From the NCBI GenBank assembly GCA_002794785.1, contig NBBA01000009.1:682001-746000 (forward strand): a DNA stretch of 64,000 nt, written 5' to 3'. The notes below the pieces were generated by a model. That model searched no databases, was not told the origin of the DNA, and saw only the letters and a program-made list of their open reading frames with translations. Positions within the stretch are counted from its first letter, which is position 1. Each line of letters starts with the position of its first letter. This DNA comes from Coniferiporia sulphurascens. Its lineage: Eukaryota; Basidiomycota; Agaricomycetes; Hymenochaetales; Hymenochaetaceae. Shown piece after piece: positions 12,371 through 23,039 of this stretch. The position numbers were made by a program, and so were the translations under genes.

Positions 12371-13605
12371 ATGGTCGCAACAACAACAGATCAGGTTCGT
12401 ATATGCGCTTTCTTTATAAATCTGTGTGCTAAGGTAGTCCTGTCCCCTAAGCTCTTAGCTCTCCAAGGAAGCACCGTAGGTAAGTGCCGTCTATGGCATT
12501 ACTAGAAACTGCCTCCTCGAACACATTCTAGTCGTACATCCTCTTGTGTTGCTCTCTGTGGCCGACCATCATGCACGCTCCGTGGCCCGTAGCTCTTCGA
12601 AAAGGGTTGTCGGCGTGCTTTTGGGTCAGGACAATGGCAACGTCATAAACGTGGCGAACTCTTTCGCGGTTCCGTTCGAGGAGGACGAGAAGGACAGCAA
12701 AACCTGGTTCCTCGATCATAACTACATCGAATCAATGTGGGAGATGTTCAAAAAGGTCAACGGTAAGCCGTGTCTATCACATTTAGTCTCAACCTGTGCA
12801 TGCTGAGCCAGTCTGTCCCAGCTCGCGAACGAATGATCGGCTGGTACCATTCCGGCCCAAAGTTACGAGCGTCCGACCTGGAAATTAACGAGCTTTTCAA
12901 GCGTTTCATACCTCGTCCGGTGATGGTCATCGTCGACGTCCGGCCTCAGACCGTAGGGATCCCAACGGACGCATATTTTGCGGTTGAGGAGATCAAGGAT
13001 GTACGTACTACAATGACCGGCCTAAGCCTGACTCGGACCCTGACCTTTGACCCCAACAGGATGGCACGGAAACCCGGAAGACTTTCTTACATGTCCCCTC
13101 GGCAATCGAGGCAGAGGAGGCAGAAGAAATTGGTGTCGAGCATCTTCTTCGTGATATCAAAGACTCAACAACAACGACTCTTGCGACGCGGGTCAGCGAG
13201 CAATTAACCTCGCTACGAGGATTGCAATCGCGTTTATCTGAAGTTCAGAAGTATCTTGTCGACGTAGCGGCGGGCAAGCTCCCAGTCAATCATCAGATTG
13301 TGTACCATCTACAGGACGTCTTCAATCTCTTGCCCGACCTCGAAGATCCTGTCGTGACACAGAGTTTCACGTCAAATACGAATGATCAACTCCTCATCGT
13401 TTACCTCAGCAGCTTATTACGTGCTGTCATCGCCTTACACGCATTAGTGGACAACAAGGCTGCAAACGGAAGAGCGGAGCTGGAGGAGGGCAAGGGAGAG
13501 GACAATCTGAGGAATTCAACAAAAGGCGACTTAAAGTCTGGAAAGGAGGATTCCAGCAAAGACTCTGGCTCGGACTCTAGTAAAGAAACCGATAAGCCTA
13601 AGTAG
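12371..13605 (+). CDS. RPN8: 26S proteasome regulatory subunit Rpn8 (PSMD7)
   Basis: Lid subunit that dimerises with the deubiquitinase Rpn11. Exons 12371..12394, 12434..12479, 12532..12762, 12822..13000, 13060..13605 (about 341 aa). The MPN domain shows [33 protein letters not shown] and [11 protein letters not shown]. The loop reads [17 protein letters not shown], so the JAMM zinc ligands HxHx7Sx2D are absent, as expected for Rpn8 rather than Rpn11. The helical C-terminal half includes [20 protein letters not shown], and the tail is rich in alternating Lys/Glu. The first intron is only 39 nt as drawn; a longer alternative (GTATAT at 12400 to the AAG at about 12466) would give a shorter N-terminus and cannot be excluded. 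Confidence 0.93.
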
Positions 13606-13849: not shown

Positions 13850-16800
13850 TTAACAGTACAGAAGGCGATAAAGGTTATAAGGATTCTTTTTATGCAAAGC
13901 GTACCACTGGCTTGATGTTGCATTGTCGAGATCGGCACTTGTGAGCAAATGAACACCAAGGTCGATGGTTTTGCTCTCGTTTTGTCGCCTTTCCCAGGAA
14001 AGTCGCATATACCCTGGGACCGCGAGAAGCTGTTCAAGCTTTCCAGTCGCAATTTGGCGAACCTCCACCGTTGAAACACCTAAGATGAACATATATGGCG
14101 ATCGAAATATAATATTCTGGGCGTTTCTGGATTCCCATTCGACAAATTTCGAGGAAAGCTGGCCATTGACGTTAATGTACGACGCGAAATCTATAAAGAA
14201 ATACATGAGAAAACAGTATTCACTCTGAAAAAACTGCGCCTACCCTTATAGCATAGAATAAAGTCGTCATTGAACTTATGAAAAGCCAGAGGCACGGAAG
14301 AGCGACAACGTTCCGCCAGGTCCGGCAAGGGGTCGTCAGCTAGCGGGAGAGCCTGCAACTGCGTTGATAAGAGGCTCTCTTTTAGTTGCTGGGCACTAGA
14401 ATATTAGTAAGTCATCGGTCACGGAACGCCTGACGGGATATATCCGCCCACTCTTCGAATTTCACTATGTAAAATGTGTTTGTTACAAGGACAAAACTGT
14501 TCTTCAAGAAGTATATGTCTTTGACGAGATACGTGAGCTCTACCTCCTGTGGAATGCAGCATTGTGAATGTTAGCGGCATAGATAATTGCGACAAACCTA
14601 CAGTAATGAGATTAAAAGGTCCAAATTTGCCCCGAAAAACGTGTCGCATCTTCGAGGACGACCCTGTTTCTATAACTTCAAAGAATCGGAGAAGAGTTTT
14701 CTATTTCTGATGCATTAGTATGAGTTATTATTTGAAACGTCGGTGGATTCACTTCTTTCTTCTTCGCGGATACCACGAGGAAGCTACGGTTTCCAATATT
14801 CCCTGTACGATAAAAGTCCACAGCCATGGATTCGTCTACACGTCGTTGGGATATGTGATTGCCCTTCATTAAATTCTCCAGACGATACCAGAATAGGGAC
14901 TGATATTTAGTTAGTATGATCATCAGTAAACGTATAAGGTCGCAATGTTGATACCTTCTCCGCCAAGACCATTAGGATGCCTACTTCATTCATCACCGTA
15001 AGGTCCGTTACGCCATTCAGCGCAACTACATGCCGCAGGTTCGCTTATTGAAGCATTAGTCATGCTGATGTTGCGTTTTGAAACTGTCACCCACGATCAC
15101 TGCCCTGACGAAGCCATATTCCACCCTCCTGACCACCTTGTGCAATGGCCAGCACCGTCTGATCGACGTACGCTACTCCCAAAAAATAGGTTGGCATTTA
15201 AAGTGTCACAAGAAAAAAGGGACGTACAAAATTCAGCAGAGCACAGCAGAGGCTTCGGAGATGTGTGAATAGTTTCCATATTGATAACCTTCAATCGTTG
15301 TCATTCGTATCCGCCTTACTACACAAAGAACACCACGAAGTCACGCACTTTTGTCTTCATCGCCTCTGCTATTCGTGCCGTCTGCGATTCCTGAAGTTTA
15401 CTGCACCATATGCGGGTTGCATACTCCGTTTCACCGTACAGGAATATTGGGGTTTGTCCAATGTAGTGCAGCTTTACACAGGGGAAAAGAGCATCGGATG
15501 GTGCCGTAGGAGGTATGTCGTCCACGGATAAACTTATCAAGTCTAACGGAAGCGGCTAGATATGAGAGTGGTCAGCATCGTTATAGCCGAGTAAACAGGG
15601 TTGGGTTATTCCTACCCTCTCACAGACGCTTAGACGCAGGTATCCTTGAGTATTAGTCTTTGTTGCGAATAACACTGGTATGCCTGTCACGACTGCTCTG
15701 CTCTGGAGCGCTTAGCACGCTGCACTCACAATAATTATCGAGCAGTAAAGCAAACCGCTCATTGAGAGAAATTCTCCCGGACTGCGGACTAGCCACACCG
15801 AGATGTAGGTTTCCGGACATTATCACCGCGCGGGAAGTCGATGTTATGTCTATATCCTGAAAGCACGGACAGTTGTATGAAAAATACACGGTAAAAGGAA
15901 AAAGGGACCAACATATTCAATGCTAGGATAGCTGCTGAAATCTAGCGCGGCGGAAAGACTTGACAACCGGGCACGTTCCTTGGATGCCGACGTTTTGAGT
16001 CCCACTTGGAGACTGACATCCCATAGTCTCGGAAACATATCCGAAATCACTTGGCGATCTTCACTCTCCTCCGTTAAAAGATCCGAGATCGCTCGCAAGC
16101 TGTCCACAAAGTGGCGCAGATGCAAACTTGGCGTACGCAAAAAACTCATAAAATCCGATTCATCGCGGAGTGAAGGCTCTTGCTAATAATTGGTGAGATC
16201 AATGAAAAAATGTATGAATACCACGGACGTACCTGCATTATGCGTTTGAATATCCCAGAACGTACCTTGCCCTCCTGCATCAAATCAACAAGTTTCCGAT
16301 AGGATGTACCAAAGCGGTGGTCATAGAGAGAATGCCATGGGATCTGGTCAATGCCACATTTTGCGACAATGGGTCCGATCCACGGGTGCTGACCGCGTTG
16401 CAGAGTGAAGAAGTTCTCCAGAAGTTGTCGATGGAAACGCAAGAAGTCATCAAAGGCGGCGATAAGAGATCTGAATATAGTCTGAAGGCTCATATCTTCT
16501 TTTCGCCGTAGACCCTCTATCTCCCAGAGGATTATCCGCAGCAGTTTCTGAAGATAACAATTTCATAAATCTCAATTAATATACCTTTTATACCTCTACT
16601 GACCTGTAAAATCTTTAGTTTTACTACGTAATTGCGCTCCTTGGAGATAAGCTCGAATATGAGCCTATGTTAAACGTACGTCAGCAAGGATTTTGCTAGT
16701 GAGAATTTACAAGGCGTTTACGTTTGGCGACTAACATCCGCCTTTGAAGCGGACTTGACCGTCTCTGCAGAAACGAAGTCTTTCCAGCCCTTCTCGTCTT

Positions 16801-19800
16801 CAGTTTGTTGCCACGAAGACAAATGAACTAGGTTGACAGTCTTTATCATCTCTTGATACGCCTCTTGCAGCACCGGAGCCTCGGGATCACTATTCATTTC
16901 TGAGATAATATACTGCAGTGTGCGATGATGCCGATCCAGGTGAGTAACTGGCGCGCGGAGAAAATCGTCGAGTGCTTTACGGAGGGTTTTGCCTCCAGGT
17001 CGCTGTTCCTAACTCGCAGCCGTCAGAGCCAATTTCCGTGCCATTGATCTATCGTTGAGACCCACTTTCAACACCGCAGAGAATTGATCGTTAGAGTCTT
17101 CCTCATCCCCAATAATCCTCTGGACCTCGGGGAGATGGCAGATGTACTCAGGGTAAACCGAGGAGAATTGCTTTGCAGCTAAAATAGAAAAGACGTGTTA
17201 ATAAGTTGCTACACGGTTCAAGACTAATATTTCGTGATAACGTGCCTTCCTGGCAGAGAAGGGCTATTCTGGTGAAGCCAATGGCAGATACGTTCGAACT
17301 GGCTTGCAACGCATTTCTGAACTGATAGTTGACCAACCGCAAGGTGAGGCTATCCTCAAATATACTGGACAAGAATGCGTCAAGACGGGCACCTATAATA
17401 CCAGGATTTGACTCTAAGCGCTGGGAAAGATATTCGTGTGTGGTGTCTGCGAGAAAGGAAGTCTCATGCTCAACGAGGTTCTCCACGGCGGCGACTTGAT
17501 TAAGCCTTCTTGGAATTCGCGTAATCCCGCGGATACTTTCCATGCTCGCCACACCTGCCCATTTAGGATCGACTTGTCCGTCGACCGTCATCCGGGATAT
17601 GATTATGTCAAAGTTATCCTTGCCGCGTCGCTTCGATGACGTCAGTGAAGTCGGCTTCAGCTTAGGCATGCGTTCATAAGCAGTGTTTTCGCGTTGGCCG
17701 AGATGGCTTTCGTCGCTGGATTCAGACTCGAATGTGGACCGGGGCTCGGGATGGATGGTCTGCTCAGACGCATTTTGCTCTGGGAACTAGCATGTTAGCC
17801 AATTCTTATCCTGGATGATTTCTCAACAGTTTTCTTTGCAGAACCTACGGTTGTGTATTGAAAGGTTGGACATTTTCCTTAGTATTCCAATGTTCGCTTT
17901 CTTTTCGGCCGGCTTACGTTCCAGTTCGACGGATATCGGTTCAGAAAACACCTGACCCGACCAGAAATAACTTTGTTCATGAGAGGTAGTGTTGTCTACG
18001 TGTGCGGCAATGCTAACTGGACTTCCCGAAAGAAGTGAACTAGCAGAGCGTGGAGTCGCTGGGTGTGTCCCAGAATTGCTTGTAGATAGATTACTCATCC
18101 TACTCATGACTGAGCTAGATGAGCTCGACTCTGGACGGTTAGTCATCTTCCCTGAATCACACCGCTTAAAGCCGTACATTGAGGTATACAAGACAAGTAC
18201 GTACCTGGTATTGCTTCGAGCGCGGCATCTGCTTTCATATGTGACGCGATCACTTGGATCAAATCGCCAGTGTTCGGTCGCTTCCTTGGTTCGGCATCCC
18301 AGCACCTCTTTTTTAAAGCATGCATGTCCGAGGAAAAACCACGCCGATGCGCCCTCGCCTTAAGCTCCGATGACATGGTCGGACGTGTTCCATGAAGAAT
18401 CTCGGGTTCCAGTAATTCGTTGTCCTCGATATGGTAAAACGGGACTTCGCTGGTAAACAACTCGTTTGTGCAACAACGTCAGGATTTGGCAAGGAAGATT
18501 CGATTATCATTATTTACCTCTGGATAATTGGACAATAGTACAAAGCCAGTCAGCCTCAGACTGTTAAAACACGAAAGTCACTCACCGAACATTACCACGC
18601 CTATTTAAGAAAGTAGCGACATTAAACACGAGAAAATCCTTCGTTAAAAGAAACAAGACGAACCCAAAGAGTATATATCAGACTGTTTTGTATAAATCGC
18701 CTCGCAATGATCCTTTTTTCTAGCGGCCCGGATCAACTCGGGCGCGCACCAACGGAGGAAATCCTCGACGCCATTTGATATCTGGCTGGAGAGCTGAAAT
18801 AATCCGAAGTCGCATATACAGGCTCCAGTACCGTCGTCCTTGATTAATATGTTCTCGGCGCGGAGACAGCCACAAAGAATAGGCTGGCCTAATGCATGTA
18901 AGTACTGCATTGCGGTCGATATGTCGTACAACCACGGAACAATATTGGTATCTCCGCAAACTTCGAGATAAGTGAGAGCGTTTGCGTTTGGAAATAGCGG
19001 AAGTACCTGTGTGGCGGTTTCGAACCTTCAGTAATAGTGATTTGACCGAGCAATACTAGGAAACGTACCAAGCAGCATCCTAGGTCCTCATTAACAAGAG
19101 TCCCATACACACGAACAATGTTCTCATGCCTAACAGAATAATAGGCGGCGACCTCCCTTCGAAAGCGCTGCAGAAAAAGGTCAGGAATAAAGGGGGGGCT
19201 CCTAAATACTAATGAACTTACCTTGACAATTCCATCATTATACTGGACTAGCTTGAGCGCCTTTATTGCGACGCTCTCCTTGTCTAGCCATTCGCCTTGA
19301 TACACTTCATACAGCGGGCTTAGGGCGCTTCTCTTGGATTCAATGTCGCTTATCTGTGTCGTTAAATCAGGGGTTGGGATCCGGATGTCGGCGTGCTTGT
19401 ATAAAAACATCAGTGCAGACTCGATATCGGAGTGCACACGAGATGTAGTGTGACACTCTCGGACCGCCTGAAGAAATCATTTCCATTGTGCCATTAATAC
19501 ATAGCAACGTCAAGGAAATGCGTAGGGCGCACATTTTGAAGTCTTTTGACGAAAAGACTCCTGCTGTCCGGCGGCTGTTTCAAAACGCGTTCGAGTAATT
19601 CTGTATTTGCTACAATTGTGTACAATGTGTCTCGAAGTGCATCCTCATCTTGCCTTCGTTTCTCAGTTAATTGCATGTCCTTGATTAGACTAGATTAATT
19701 ATCTTTTAAGCACAGGAGACCAAAATCATATTTACCTCGGCGCGCATACCGCACCACCTCAATTCACCATAGAGCTTATCGACGCCAGTGCGTATCTGAT

Positions 19801-20171
19801 CCGACTGAAGGAAGCTTTGAACAATGTCCAGCTCACACCATTCCACCAGTCGATCGTGGATATTGTTTACGGCACTGAGTAAAATTTAAATTCCGCTACG
19901 TCATGTATAAGACAGCTAGACCCACTCATCCCACTGCTGGGCGGACTCCGGCTCGGCCTCGGTAAGAGAACCTGCGGAAAGCGTTTTCTCCACGAGGGTG
20001 CACAAGAAAGCACACTGTCTCTAACATATGCGTGTGAGAAATTCAGAGTAAGCTATTATTAATAAGCAAGGGATGAGACGAAGGGCTTACCTTGTAGGCC
20101 TTCACTCTTCGAGCGCATTCCTGCGCTTTTTTAAGAGTGTGTGGAAGAAGTAGCGGCTCTGGTGTCGCCAT
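13850..20171 (-). CDS. Composite signalling protein: helical bundle - pseudokinase - DH - DH - PH - CNH
   Basis: 28 exons joined in phase (1589 aa): 20171..20091, 20020..19926, 19874..19736, 19679..19533, 19467..19222, 19167..19069, 19006..18664, 18600..18586, 18519..18518, 18460..18205, 18151..17849, 17779..17246, 17178..17066, 17008..16722, 16664..16604, 16547..16233, 16182..15913, 15856..15730, 15683..15616, 15555..15349, 15288..15228, 15172..15095, 15043..14955, 14899..14753, 14700..14602, 14546..14452, 14395..14244, 14190..13850. Residues 1-150 form a helical bundle like those before fungal TKL-type kinases. The kinase-like domain (about 200-475) keeps VAIK, CDFG and WCAPEL, but the HRD loop reads LCGCLRAEN, Cys replacing the catalytic Asp. 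A Ser-rich linker leads to DH1 (about 665-885, YPEYICHLPEVQ, LRKALDDFLRAPV), DH2 (about 890-1100, LIFELISKERNYVVKL), PH (about 1103-1240) and CNH to the end. Predicted Rho-GTPase exchange factor of the Rom/Tus1 kind. Confidence 0.8.
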
Positions 20172-21815: not shown

Positions 21816-23039
21816 ATGTCTGCTGCTCGTGGTTGCTTTAACTGTGGCGAATGTGCGTCGTTCGATCCTTTTTTCTTCGTTTGTCTACTATCGTCGGTCA
21901 TCATATGCCGTGAATCGCATATTTTGACGGTTTATATCTTGTGCCTCTTCATATGGATTTACGTTCTCCTGAGCCGGGTGGCACGGTACTGACGGTGGTC
22001 CAACCGACTTTTGCTTTACATGTTACGCGGCATCCACATTTGGCCAAATCTATTCGTATATCGCTCCAATATCGTCTCCTACGATGAAAAAAAACGAAAT
22101 ACCGTTTGCCCTTGTCATGATCGACCGAACGTGATCAAATAGACGGCCATCAAGCTTTAAATTGCACGGCGAGCCGGGTTTGGTACAGTCACTTTGGACA
22201 TTGATGAGTTGAGGGACCAACTGAGCACTTCTGGTCATTTTAAAAGCTATAACTGTCAGCTTCATCTCCGTTTCCTCGTTTTAAGTACTTGACGATTAAT
22301 TGGATTCTTTTCAGGCGGCAATAACGGTCACATCTCGAAGGACTGCACCGGCGAAACTAAAGCGAAGTCCTGCTACAGGTGCAAACAGGAGGGCCACATC
22401 GTTAGTCCATTTGGTTTGACTGGTCATGTTGTAGTGGGCCATTATCTAATGGATGTTTTAGTCTCGGGACTGCCCAGAGCAGGCAGAAGCTGGCAGTGGA
22501 TACAGGTCGTTCAACAATGGCGGGGGGCAAAACGCCGGCCAAGAGTGTTACCGCTGCGGGAAGGTAGGACACATAGCCCGCAGCTGCCCCGAGGCAGCTG
22601 GTGGAGCTAGCAGTGGAAACTACAGCGGCGGCGGTGGTGGGGTCTCTTCGGGGAAGTCTTGGTGAGCAAAGCATGAGCGCGCTTTTGCAGGGAGAGTATC
22701 ATAACTCCGTTCGCAAATAGCTACACCTGTGGGGGTGTTGGCCACCTTTCGCGCGACTGCGTTCAAGGCTCAAAATGCTATAACTGCTCTGGCTTCGTAA
22801 GTTCATCTGTTAATGCTTTTGTCTGATTGATGCTTGAGCCCTTATTCCACAGGGCCATATCAGTCGTGATTGTCCTCAGCCTCAGAAGAGGGCATGCTAC
22901 ACATGCGGTTCCGAAGGGTGGGTGTTTCCATTTGTTCAATCGAGCGGCGAATTTTACTGATGATCCGATGTCGATTTTTAGACACATTTCGCGAGACTGT
23001 CCTGGAACATCCGCGGATGCTGTAGTAGAGGATGCTTGA
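21816..23039 (+). CDS. GIS2: CCHC zinc-knuckle nucleic-acid-binding protein (Gis2/CNBP type)
   Basis: Exons 21816..21852, 22315..22400, 22462..22661, 22721..22796, 22853..22917, 22982..23039 (173 aa). CX2CX4HX4C knuckles: CYRCKQEGHISRDC, CYRCGKVGHIARSC, CYTCGGVGHLSRDC, CYNCSGFGHISRDC, CYTCGSEGHISRDC; several span exon junctions, which confirms the splicing. A Gly/Ser-rich spacer lies between the third and fourth complete knuckles. The first knuckle is odd: as spliced it reads CFNCGE, then CGGNN, then GHISKDC, five extra residues. The first intron is 462 nt, against about 60 nt for the others, so a missed exon inside it is possible. Gis2/CNBP proteins bind RNA and affect translation and stress granules; that role is taken from the family. 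Confidence 0.88.

What the first reader, a model, noticed from the sequence alone, without database searches (positions are those of the whole stretch)
13850..20171. One gene encodes helical bundle, pseudokinase, two tandem DH domains, PH and CNH
Seen: 28 exons from 20171 to 13850 join without a frame break, including the junctions that link the kinase-like part to the GEF part (18205/18151 and 17849/17779). Known: yeast Rom1/2 and Tus1 are DH-PH-CNH proteins without a kinase; many agaricomycete kinases have an N-terminal helical bundle but no GEF. Inference: fusion of the two architectures could couple a signal-sensing pseudokinase directly to Rho activation, for example at the cell wall. I do not know a characterised protein with this domain order.
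Basis: partly seen in the sequence, partly recalled or inferred. Interest (0 to 1): 0.85.

Follow-up and report, generated by a model that had tools for sequence, protein, structure and literature searches.

The report
Pseudokinase fused to Rho1-type GEF
A wood-rot fungus carries one gene that joins a cell-death-protein-like helical bundle and a dead-looking protein kinase to a Rho-switch regulator; relatives seem to share it, but databases show only pieces, most likely because one exon is just two letters long.

Summary
My reading of window 20171-13850 (-) gives 28 exons and 1586 aa with no stop. Pfam finds kinase, RhoGEF and CNH; each DH alone passes the RhoGEF cut-off, the PH does not reach its own. 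Deposited proteins of three Hymenochaetaceae genera recover 25 of 27 introns. The two missing introns flank a proposed 2-nt microexon (18519-18518), where the Phellopilus models are split; that path ranks 1 of 648 splicings against a kinase profile built without this gene. The HRD Asp is Cys here and in Phellopilus. A tandem-DH CNH gene without kinase exists in the same genome, so tandem DH is not unique; the kinase fusion is the novelty. Both DHs are eroded (12-18 of 43 canonical positions against 33-40; positions chosen on the canonical set), so direct Rho activation is unproven. The genome also holds a helical-bundle-kinase-RasGEF gene: this kinase module is fused to GEFs of two classes. 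No description in print turned up in ten library searches. No transcript was seen.

The parts
13850..20171 (-). Whole gene, 28 exons, 1586 aa
   Evidence: model; Pfam and relatives
19362..20171 (-). Exons 1 to part of 5: N-terminal helical bundle plus two further helices, aa 1-190
   Evidence: profile 33.4 bits vs best of 901 shuffles 10.5; six helices in a low-confidence model of Phellopilus P0023
18233..19332 (-). Protein kinase domain, about aa 200-465; K223 and DFG 335-337 kept, HRD place is CGC 314-316
   Evidence: Pfam 5.1e-31; alignment; residues checked
18866..18868 (-). Codon 316, Cys in place of the catalytic Asp of HRD
   Evidence: alignment; position counted
18518..18519 (-). Proposed 2-nt microexon (AG), exon 9, inside the kinase stretch SLGVVMFELFTSEVPF
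17586..18232 (-). Ser-rich linker joining kinase to GEF half, crossing both junctions named in the finding
   Evidence: present in P0001 and P0022; 84% and 57% identity
16796..17585 (-). DH1 (RhoGEF), CR1 Glu replaced
   Evidence: 41.7 bits, E 1.9e-10
17179..17245 (-). GC-AG intron inside DH1
   Evidence: recovered with P0001, P0021 and P0022
15913..16795 (-). DH2 (RhoGEF), CR1 Glu kept, CR3 diverged
   Evidence: 33.0 bits, E 8.6e-8
15349..15856 (-). PH-like domain, aa 1103-1233
   Evidence: PH_5 E 0.0017, below cut-off; DH2-PH aligns to LARG 1txd, E 0.017
13976..15255 (-). CNH domain, about aa 1245-1545
   Evidence: Pfam 5.3e-28; nearest solved structure 5o51 A. fumigatus Rom2, 9e-14

Best explanation
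One gene encodes a single protein in which a kinase module laid out like MLKL (four-helix bundle, two linking helices, pseudokinase) takes the N-terminal place of a Rom2/Tus1-like tandem-DH-PH-CNH Rho1 regulator. Shown by sequence: domain order, loss of the HRD aspartate, erosion of both DH domains, similar conservation of all parts between two genera. Inferred: the N-terminal module receives the signal (by phosphorylation, ligand binding or oligomerisation), and the PH-like and CNH parts place the protein at the membrane beside Rho1, where it steers Rho1 output (cell wall, polarity) mainly as a Rho1-binding scaffold or weak exchange factor rather than as a strong GEF.
For: Continuous 28-exon frame; 25 of 27 introns recovered from relatives; kinase C-lobe end and GEF in one deposited protein in two genera (P0001, P0022; 81% and 49% identity in that piece); N-terminal part conserved in Phellopilus P0023, 57% over 392 aligned columns; identity window to Phellopilus 49-72% in each part (helical 58, kinase 56 and 49, linker 57, DH1 58, DH2 72, PH 55, CNH 62); HRD Asp lost in both fusion sequences and kept in 8 of 8 other kinases aligned; fusion DHs keep 12-18 of 43 canonical positions, canonical DHs 33-40; CNH matches solved Rom2 CNH, a domain reported to bind the Rho1 switch II motif in A. 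fumigatus (PMC9697909, passages).
Against: No transcript, protein or activity data. Relatives' proteins are themselves predictions. Pfam finds no kinase in P0001 or P0022: they hold only the last part of it, whose match to solved kinases is weak (E 0.05, with a profile that includes the window model). DH2 keeps the CR1 Glu in 3 of 4 sequences and both DHs still pass the Pfam cut-off, so exchange is possible; DH2 is also the part most conserved to Phellopilus (141 of 196 aligned residues; 44 residues are missing in that model). The 43 positions were chosen on the canonical set, which favours it. Rho1 as target is inferred from domain kinship only. Structure models were poor (pLDDT 57 and 34).
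Confidence: 0.55

Rival explanations
1. Active exchange factor: the pseudokinase module gates a working DH2-PH, so that a signal directly loads Rho1 with GTP.
For: DH2 has the CR1 Glu in window, C. weirii and Phellinidium and passes the RhoGEF cut-off; PH-like and CNH parts follow in the usual order.
Against: Several CR3 positions of DH2 are changed (canonical R to H, LL to DS or SR, K to D or E) and the CR1 Glu is Thr in Phellopilus; DH scores 33-42 bits against 102-115 for the tandem-DH paralogue.
Confidence: 0.27
2. Cell-death protein: the four-helix bundle disrupts membranes like MLKL or HeLo domains and the GEF half is its sensor or brake.
For: Layout like MLKL (recalled); basidiomycete MLKL-like domains are frequent at the N-termini of fungal NLRs (PMC9815663, passages).
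Against: A related helical-bundle kinase here is fused to RasGEF, which points to signalling; that paper itself asks for experiments before cell-death activity of such domains is accepted.
Confidence: 0.1
3. Two separate genes: a truncated kinase-like protein and a GEF that starts at the Met in exon 10, as deposited for Phellopilus.
For: P0023 and P0022 are separate entries on contigs of the same length; P0001 also starts at that Met.
Against: The cut lies inside the kinase domain; P0023's tail aligns with exon 10 read in another frame; the GEF entries keep the end of the kinase C-lobe; the window has an in-frame path that ranks 1 of 648.
Confidence: 0.06
4. Both products (compatible with the readings above): the 2-nt exon is skipped or included, giving a short helical-bundle protein or the full fusion.
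For: Skipping in the window puts exon 10 into the frame that P0023's tail resembles, a frame that stops at 18360.
Against: No RNA evidence; the skip may be only an annotation error.
Confidence: 0.15

Closest known systems
Rom2/Tus1/Rgf-type fungal Rho1 GEFs (DH-PH-CNH, some with DEP)
   Same: DH, PH-like and CNH in the same order; CNH matches A. fumigatus Rom2 5o51
   Different: N-terminus is a helical-bundle pseudokinase; two DH domains, both eroded
Tandem-DH CNH gene in the same genome (C2:2409-2414 kb, L015)
   Same: two DH domains, then PH-like sequence and CNH; its DH1 also lacks the CR1 Glu (Lys)
   Different: no kinase match at E<=1 in the 9.9-kb stretch (tblastn); a DEP-like stretch ahead, below cut-off (13.3 of 32.7 bits); DH domains score 115 and 102 bits
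Helical-bundle-kinase-RasGEF proteins (Auriscalpium P0002; C13:148-152 kb here)
   Same: related N-terminal helical bundle and TKL-type kinase, fused to a small-GTPase GEF
   Different: RasGEF instead of RhoGEF; HRD Asp kept
Human MLKL and basidiomycete MLKL-like domains
   Same: four-helix bundle, linking helices, pseudokinase (MLKL layout recalled)
   Different: no GEF in MLKL; cell-death role untested here
KSR2
   Same: best PDB match of the kinase part (E 1.4e-17); a TKL pseudokinase scaffold (recalled)
   Different: KSR2 keeps the Asp at the HRD place in the printed alignment; no GEF

Membership tests
Rom2-type RhoGEF | RhoGEF (DH) domain over Pfam cut-off | tested here: met
   DH1 41.7, DH2 33.0 bits, cut-off 27.6
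Rom2-type RhoGEF | PH domain after DH | tested here: inconclusive
   PH_5 18.9 bits under cut-off 30; LARG alignment continues into PH, E 0.017
Rom2-type RhoGEF | C-terminal CNH domain | tested here: met
   99 bits, cut-off 26; 5o51
Rom2-type RhoGEF | N-terminal DEP domain (in Rgf1 and Rgf2, not in Rgf3) | tested here: not met
   no DEP hit at E<=1; DEP variability from PMC9697909 passages, so not strictly defining
Rom2-type RhoGEF | conserved CR1-CR3 positions of a working DH | tested here: not met
   12-18 of 43 positions in 8 of 8 fusion DHs, 33-40 in 5 of 5 canonical (positions chosen on the canonical set, one fusion DH has 15 gaps)
Rom2-type RhoGEF | exchange activity on Rho1 | not testable with these tools
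   biochemistry needed
Active protein kinase | VAIK Lys, HRD Asp and DFG Asp all present | tested here: not met
   Lys and DFG kept, HRD Asp is Cys in window and Phellopilus
Helical-bundle (MLKL_NTD-like) kinase | N-terminal helical bundle related to other such kinases | tested here: met
   33.4 bits vs best of 901 shuffles 10.5; P0002 E 3.5e-18 over helical and kinase parts
Helical-bundle (MLKL_NTD-like) kinase | match to CDD MLKL_NTD | not tested
   CDD not on hand; Pfam gives no hit for the N-terminus
Single gene | transcript spanning kinase and GEF | not testable with these tools
   no RNA data

The most novel reading that the evidence does not exclude
A signalling protein made of two dead enzymes: an MLKL-like pseudokinase fused to catalytically dead tandem DH domains, acting as a Rho1 scaffold, with production of the full fusion gated by inclusion of a conserved 2-nt microexon (skipping yields only the helical bundle and part of the kinase).
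Probability: 0.17. Interest if true: 0.82.

Novelty: new variant of a known kind. Interest (0 to 1): 0.62.

Why it matters
If transcribed as read, it is a direct physical link between an MLKL-like pseudokinase and a Rho1-type regulator, seen whole in two genera of Hymenochaetaceae (window and Phellopilus) and in part in a third (Phellinidium, GEF half only). With the RasGEF fusion it suggests that mushroom-forming fungi have wired this kinase module to small GTPases more than once, a lead on what the TKL kinases that are so many in Laccaria (PMC2838846, passages) may do. It also shows how a 2-nt exon can hide an architecture from databases.

Tried and rejected
A codon-and-splice gene finder of my own gave another 29-exon path; dropped because it skipped segments that relatives support. 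Skipping the microexon, or using other exons between exon 7 and exon 10: 648 GT-AG paths with at most three exon pieces and introns of 45-150 nt were scored, all 648 reported; the model path was first at 209.2 bits, the second (201.2) also uses the 2-nt exon, the best path without it had 200.0. Paths with longer introns or more pieces (up to 19432) were counted but not scored. A close paralogue of the whole gene in the own genome: the kinase part's best hit elsewhere had 52 bits, the GEF part's search reported hits only in this gene; but one search also missed the CNH genes known, so only a close copy is excluded. Whether the kinase descends from the kinase-RasGEF family: the tree of 10 sequences leaves it open. 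Structure prediction of the GEF half failed (pLDDT 34) and of the N-terminal half was weak (57); Foldseek on the latter listed kinases in the 50 rows shown, and nothing about the bundle. Absence from other fungi cannot be claimed: one search scored only 7986 candidates, and only lengths of 0.55-1.75 times the query are candidates. That P0022 and P0023 lie side by side rests on equal contig length only.

Full report
What is there. Reading the minus strand from 20171 to 13850, I assembled 28 exons by splice sites and frame: 4761 nt, 1586 aa, no internal stop, 27 introns of 50-70 nt. 26 introns are GT-AG; one (17245-17179) is GC-AG. Exon 8 has 15 nt and exon 9 only 2 nt. Pfam on the product gives Pkinase, RhoGEF in two stretches and CNH. 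Cut out alone, DH1 and DH2 each pass the RhoGEF cut-off (41.7 and 33.0 bits; 27.6 needed), and the next piece matches PH_5 below cut-off. A first automatic gene finder of mine chose another path and was dropped.

Relatives. The window's genome is 39.35 Mb in 31 contigs. Its GEF half is 92% identical to a Coniferiporia weirii protein (P0001), 66% to Phellinidium pouzarii (P0021, a partial entry) and 57% to Phellopilus nigrolimitatus (P0022) (3 proteins at E<=1e-8 among 7986 scored candidates). The kinase half found one protein at E<=1e-12, Phellopilus P0023, 57% identical (7994 scored). All three genera are Hymenochaetaceae; that the window itself is a Coniferiporia is my inference. P0022 and P0023 are both given a contig of 1,393,024 bases, so probably the same one. 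Aligning the four deposited proteins to the window DNA with a spliced aligner of my own recovered 25 of 27 introns; P0022 differs at 3 of its 18.

The split in the databases. P0023 follows the window through VMF and then has a tail that aligns with exon 10 read in another frame (VVYWCDPLLPYRRQR against VVYQRSPVLPYRGQR): the Phellopilus model apparently went from exon 8 straight to exon 10 without two bases. P0022 and P0001 both begin at the same Met a little further into exon 10, still inside the kinase. Pfam is too coarse to see that remnant (no kinase hit in P0001 or P0022); a profile of alignment A1, which includes the window model, matches it weakly to Kit kinases (E 0.05). The split is best read as the trace of an unseen 2-nt exon. 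In the window, a profile of six other kinases, built without this gene, puts the path with the 2-nt exon first among 648 GT-AG splicings (209.2 bits; best path without it 200.0). A paper on Trichoderma says functional microexons had not been described before in filamentous fungi (PMC11121469, start of abstract in a listing). A real microexon-skipped short product is not excluded.

The kinase. It is of TKL type: best solved matches are KSR2, CTR1 and RAF. Lys of VAIK and DFG are kept; the HRD place is CGC here and GGC in Phellopilus, while 8 of 8 other kinases aligned (6 fungal, 2 bacterial) keep the Asp. The N-terminus is related to those of three other helical-bundle kinases (33.4 bits, Phellopilus 22.0, against a best of 10.5 in 901 reported of 1000 shuffles).

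The GEF half. CNH hits in the own genome lie at three places besides this gene (a lower bound). One (L015) has two RhoGEF domains, PH-like sequence and CNH, with a DEP-like stretch ahead that is below cut-off and no kinase match in the stretch searched; its DH pieces, typed with approximate splice borders, score 115 and 102 bits. DH1 of the fusion is nearest to DH1 of that gene; the nearest relative of DH2 is unclear. So tandem DH is not special to the fusion. At 43 positions where at least 4 of 5 canonical DHs agree, the fusion DHs keep 12-18 and the canonical ones 33-40; the choice of positions favours the canonical set, and the Phellopilus DH2 model lacks 15 of them by gap. The CR1 glutamate is N, N, K, S in DH1 and E, E, E, T in DH2 (window, C. 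weirii, Phellinidium, Phellopilus). In CR3 of DH2 the canonical R is H, LL is DS or SR, K is D or E, while Y is F. Which residues do the catalysis is recalled; that mutations in CR1-CR3 lower exchange is stated in PMC9697909 (passages).

A second GEF fusion. Auriscalpium P0002 is a helical-bundle kinase with RasGEF. The window's genome has its counterpart on C13, with kinase, RasGEF_N and RasGEF by Pfam. A tree of ten kinase rows does not tell whether the RhoGEF-fused kinase comes from it.

How it may work. Shown: architecture, loss of HRD Asp, eroded DHs, similar conservation of the parts (49-72% to Phellopilus). Inferred: the MLKL-like part is the receiver; PH-like and CNH parts bring the protein to Rho1; output is through Rho1 binding or weak exchange. 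In fission yeast Rho1 GEFs, N- and C-terminal regions are thought to hold the GEF autoinhibited, and A. fumigatus Rom2 CNH interacts with Rho1 (PMC9697909, passages).

In print. Ten searches of the paper library listed no paper whose title or abstract describes a kinase-RhoGEF-CNH protein of fungi; I saw passages of four papers and listings of the rest. Kosti et al. 2010 (PMC2838846) report many TKL kinases in Laccaria; the words RhoGEF and RasGEF do not occur in its main text. Absence from this open-licence library is not absence from print.

Noticed in passing
G000:C13:148164-152388 (-), L053: Helical-bundle-kinase-RasGEF gene, counterpart of Auriscalpium vulgare P0002; a second fusion of this kinase module to a small-GTPase GEF.
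   Followed up: partly
G000:C2:2409000-2414000 (-), L015: Tandem-DH, PH-like, CNH gene with a DEP-like stretch below cut-off and no detected kinase.
   Followed up: partly
window 18519-18518: Proposed 2-nt microexon with a 15-nt exon just before it (18600-18586); possible splice switch.
   Followed up: partly
window 12767-13605 (+): Convergent neighbour with JAB and MitMem_reg matches, likely a proteasome lid subunit such as Rpn8 (name from memory).
   Followed up: partly
window 22293-22662 (+): Zinc-knuckle (CCHC) protein fragments upstream.
   Followed up: no
P0022 versus window 16229-16049: The Phellopilus GEF model lacks about 44 residues of DH2 (CR3) and uses three other introns; mis-annotation or real loss not settled.
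   Followed up: no
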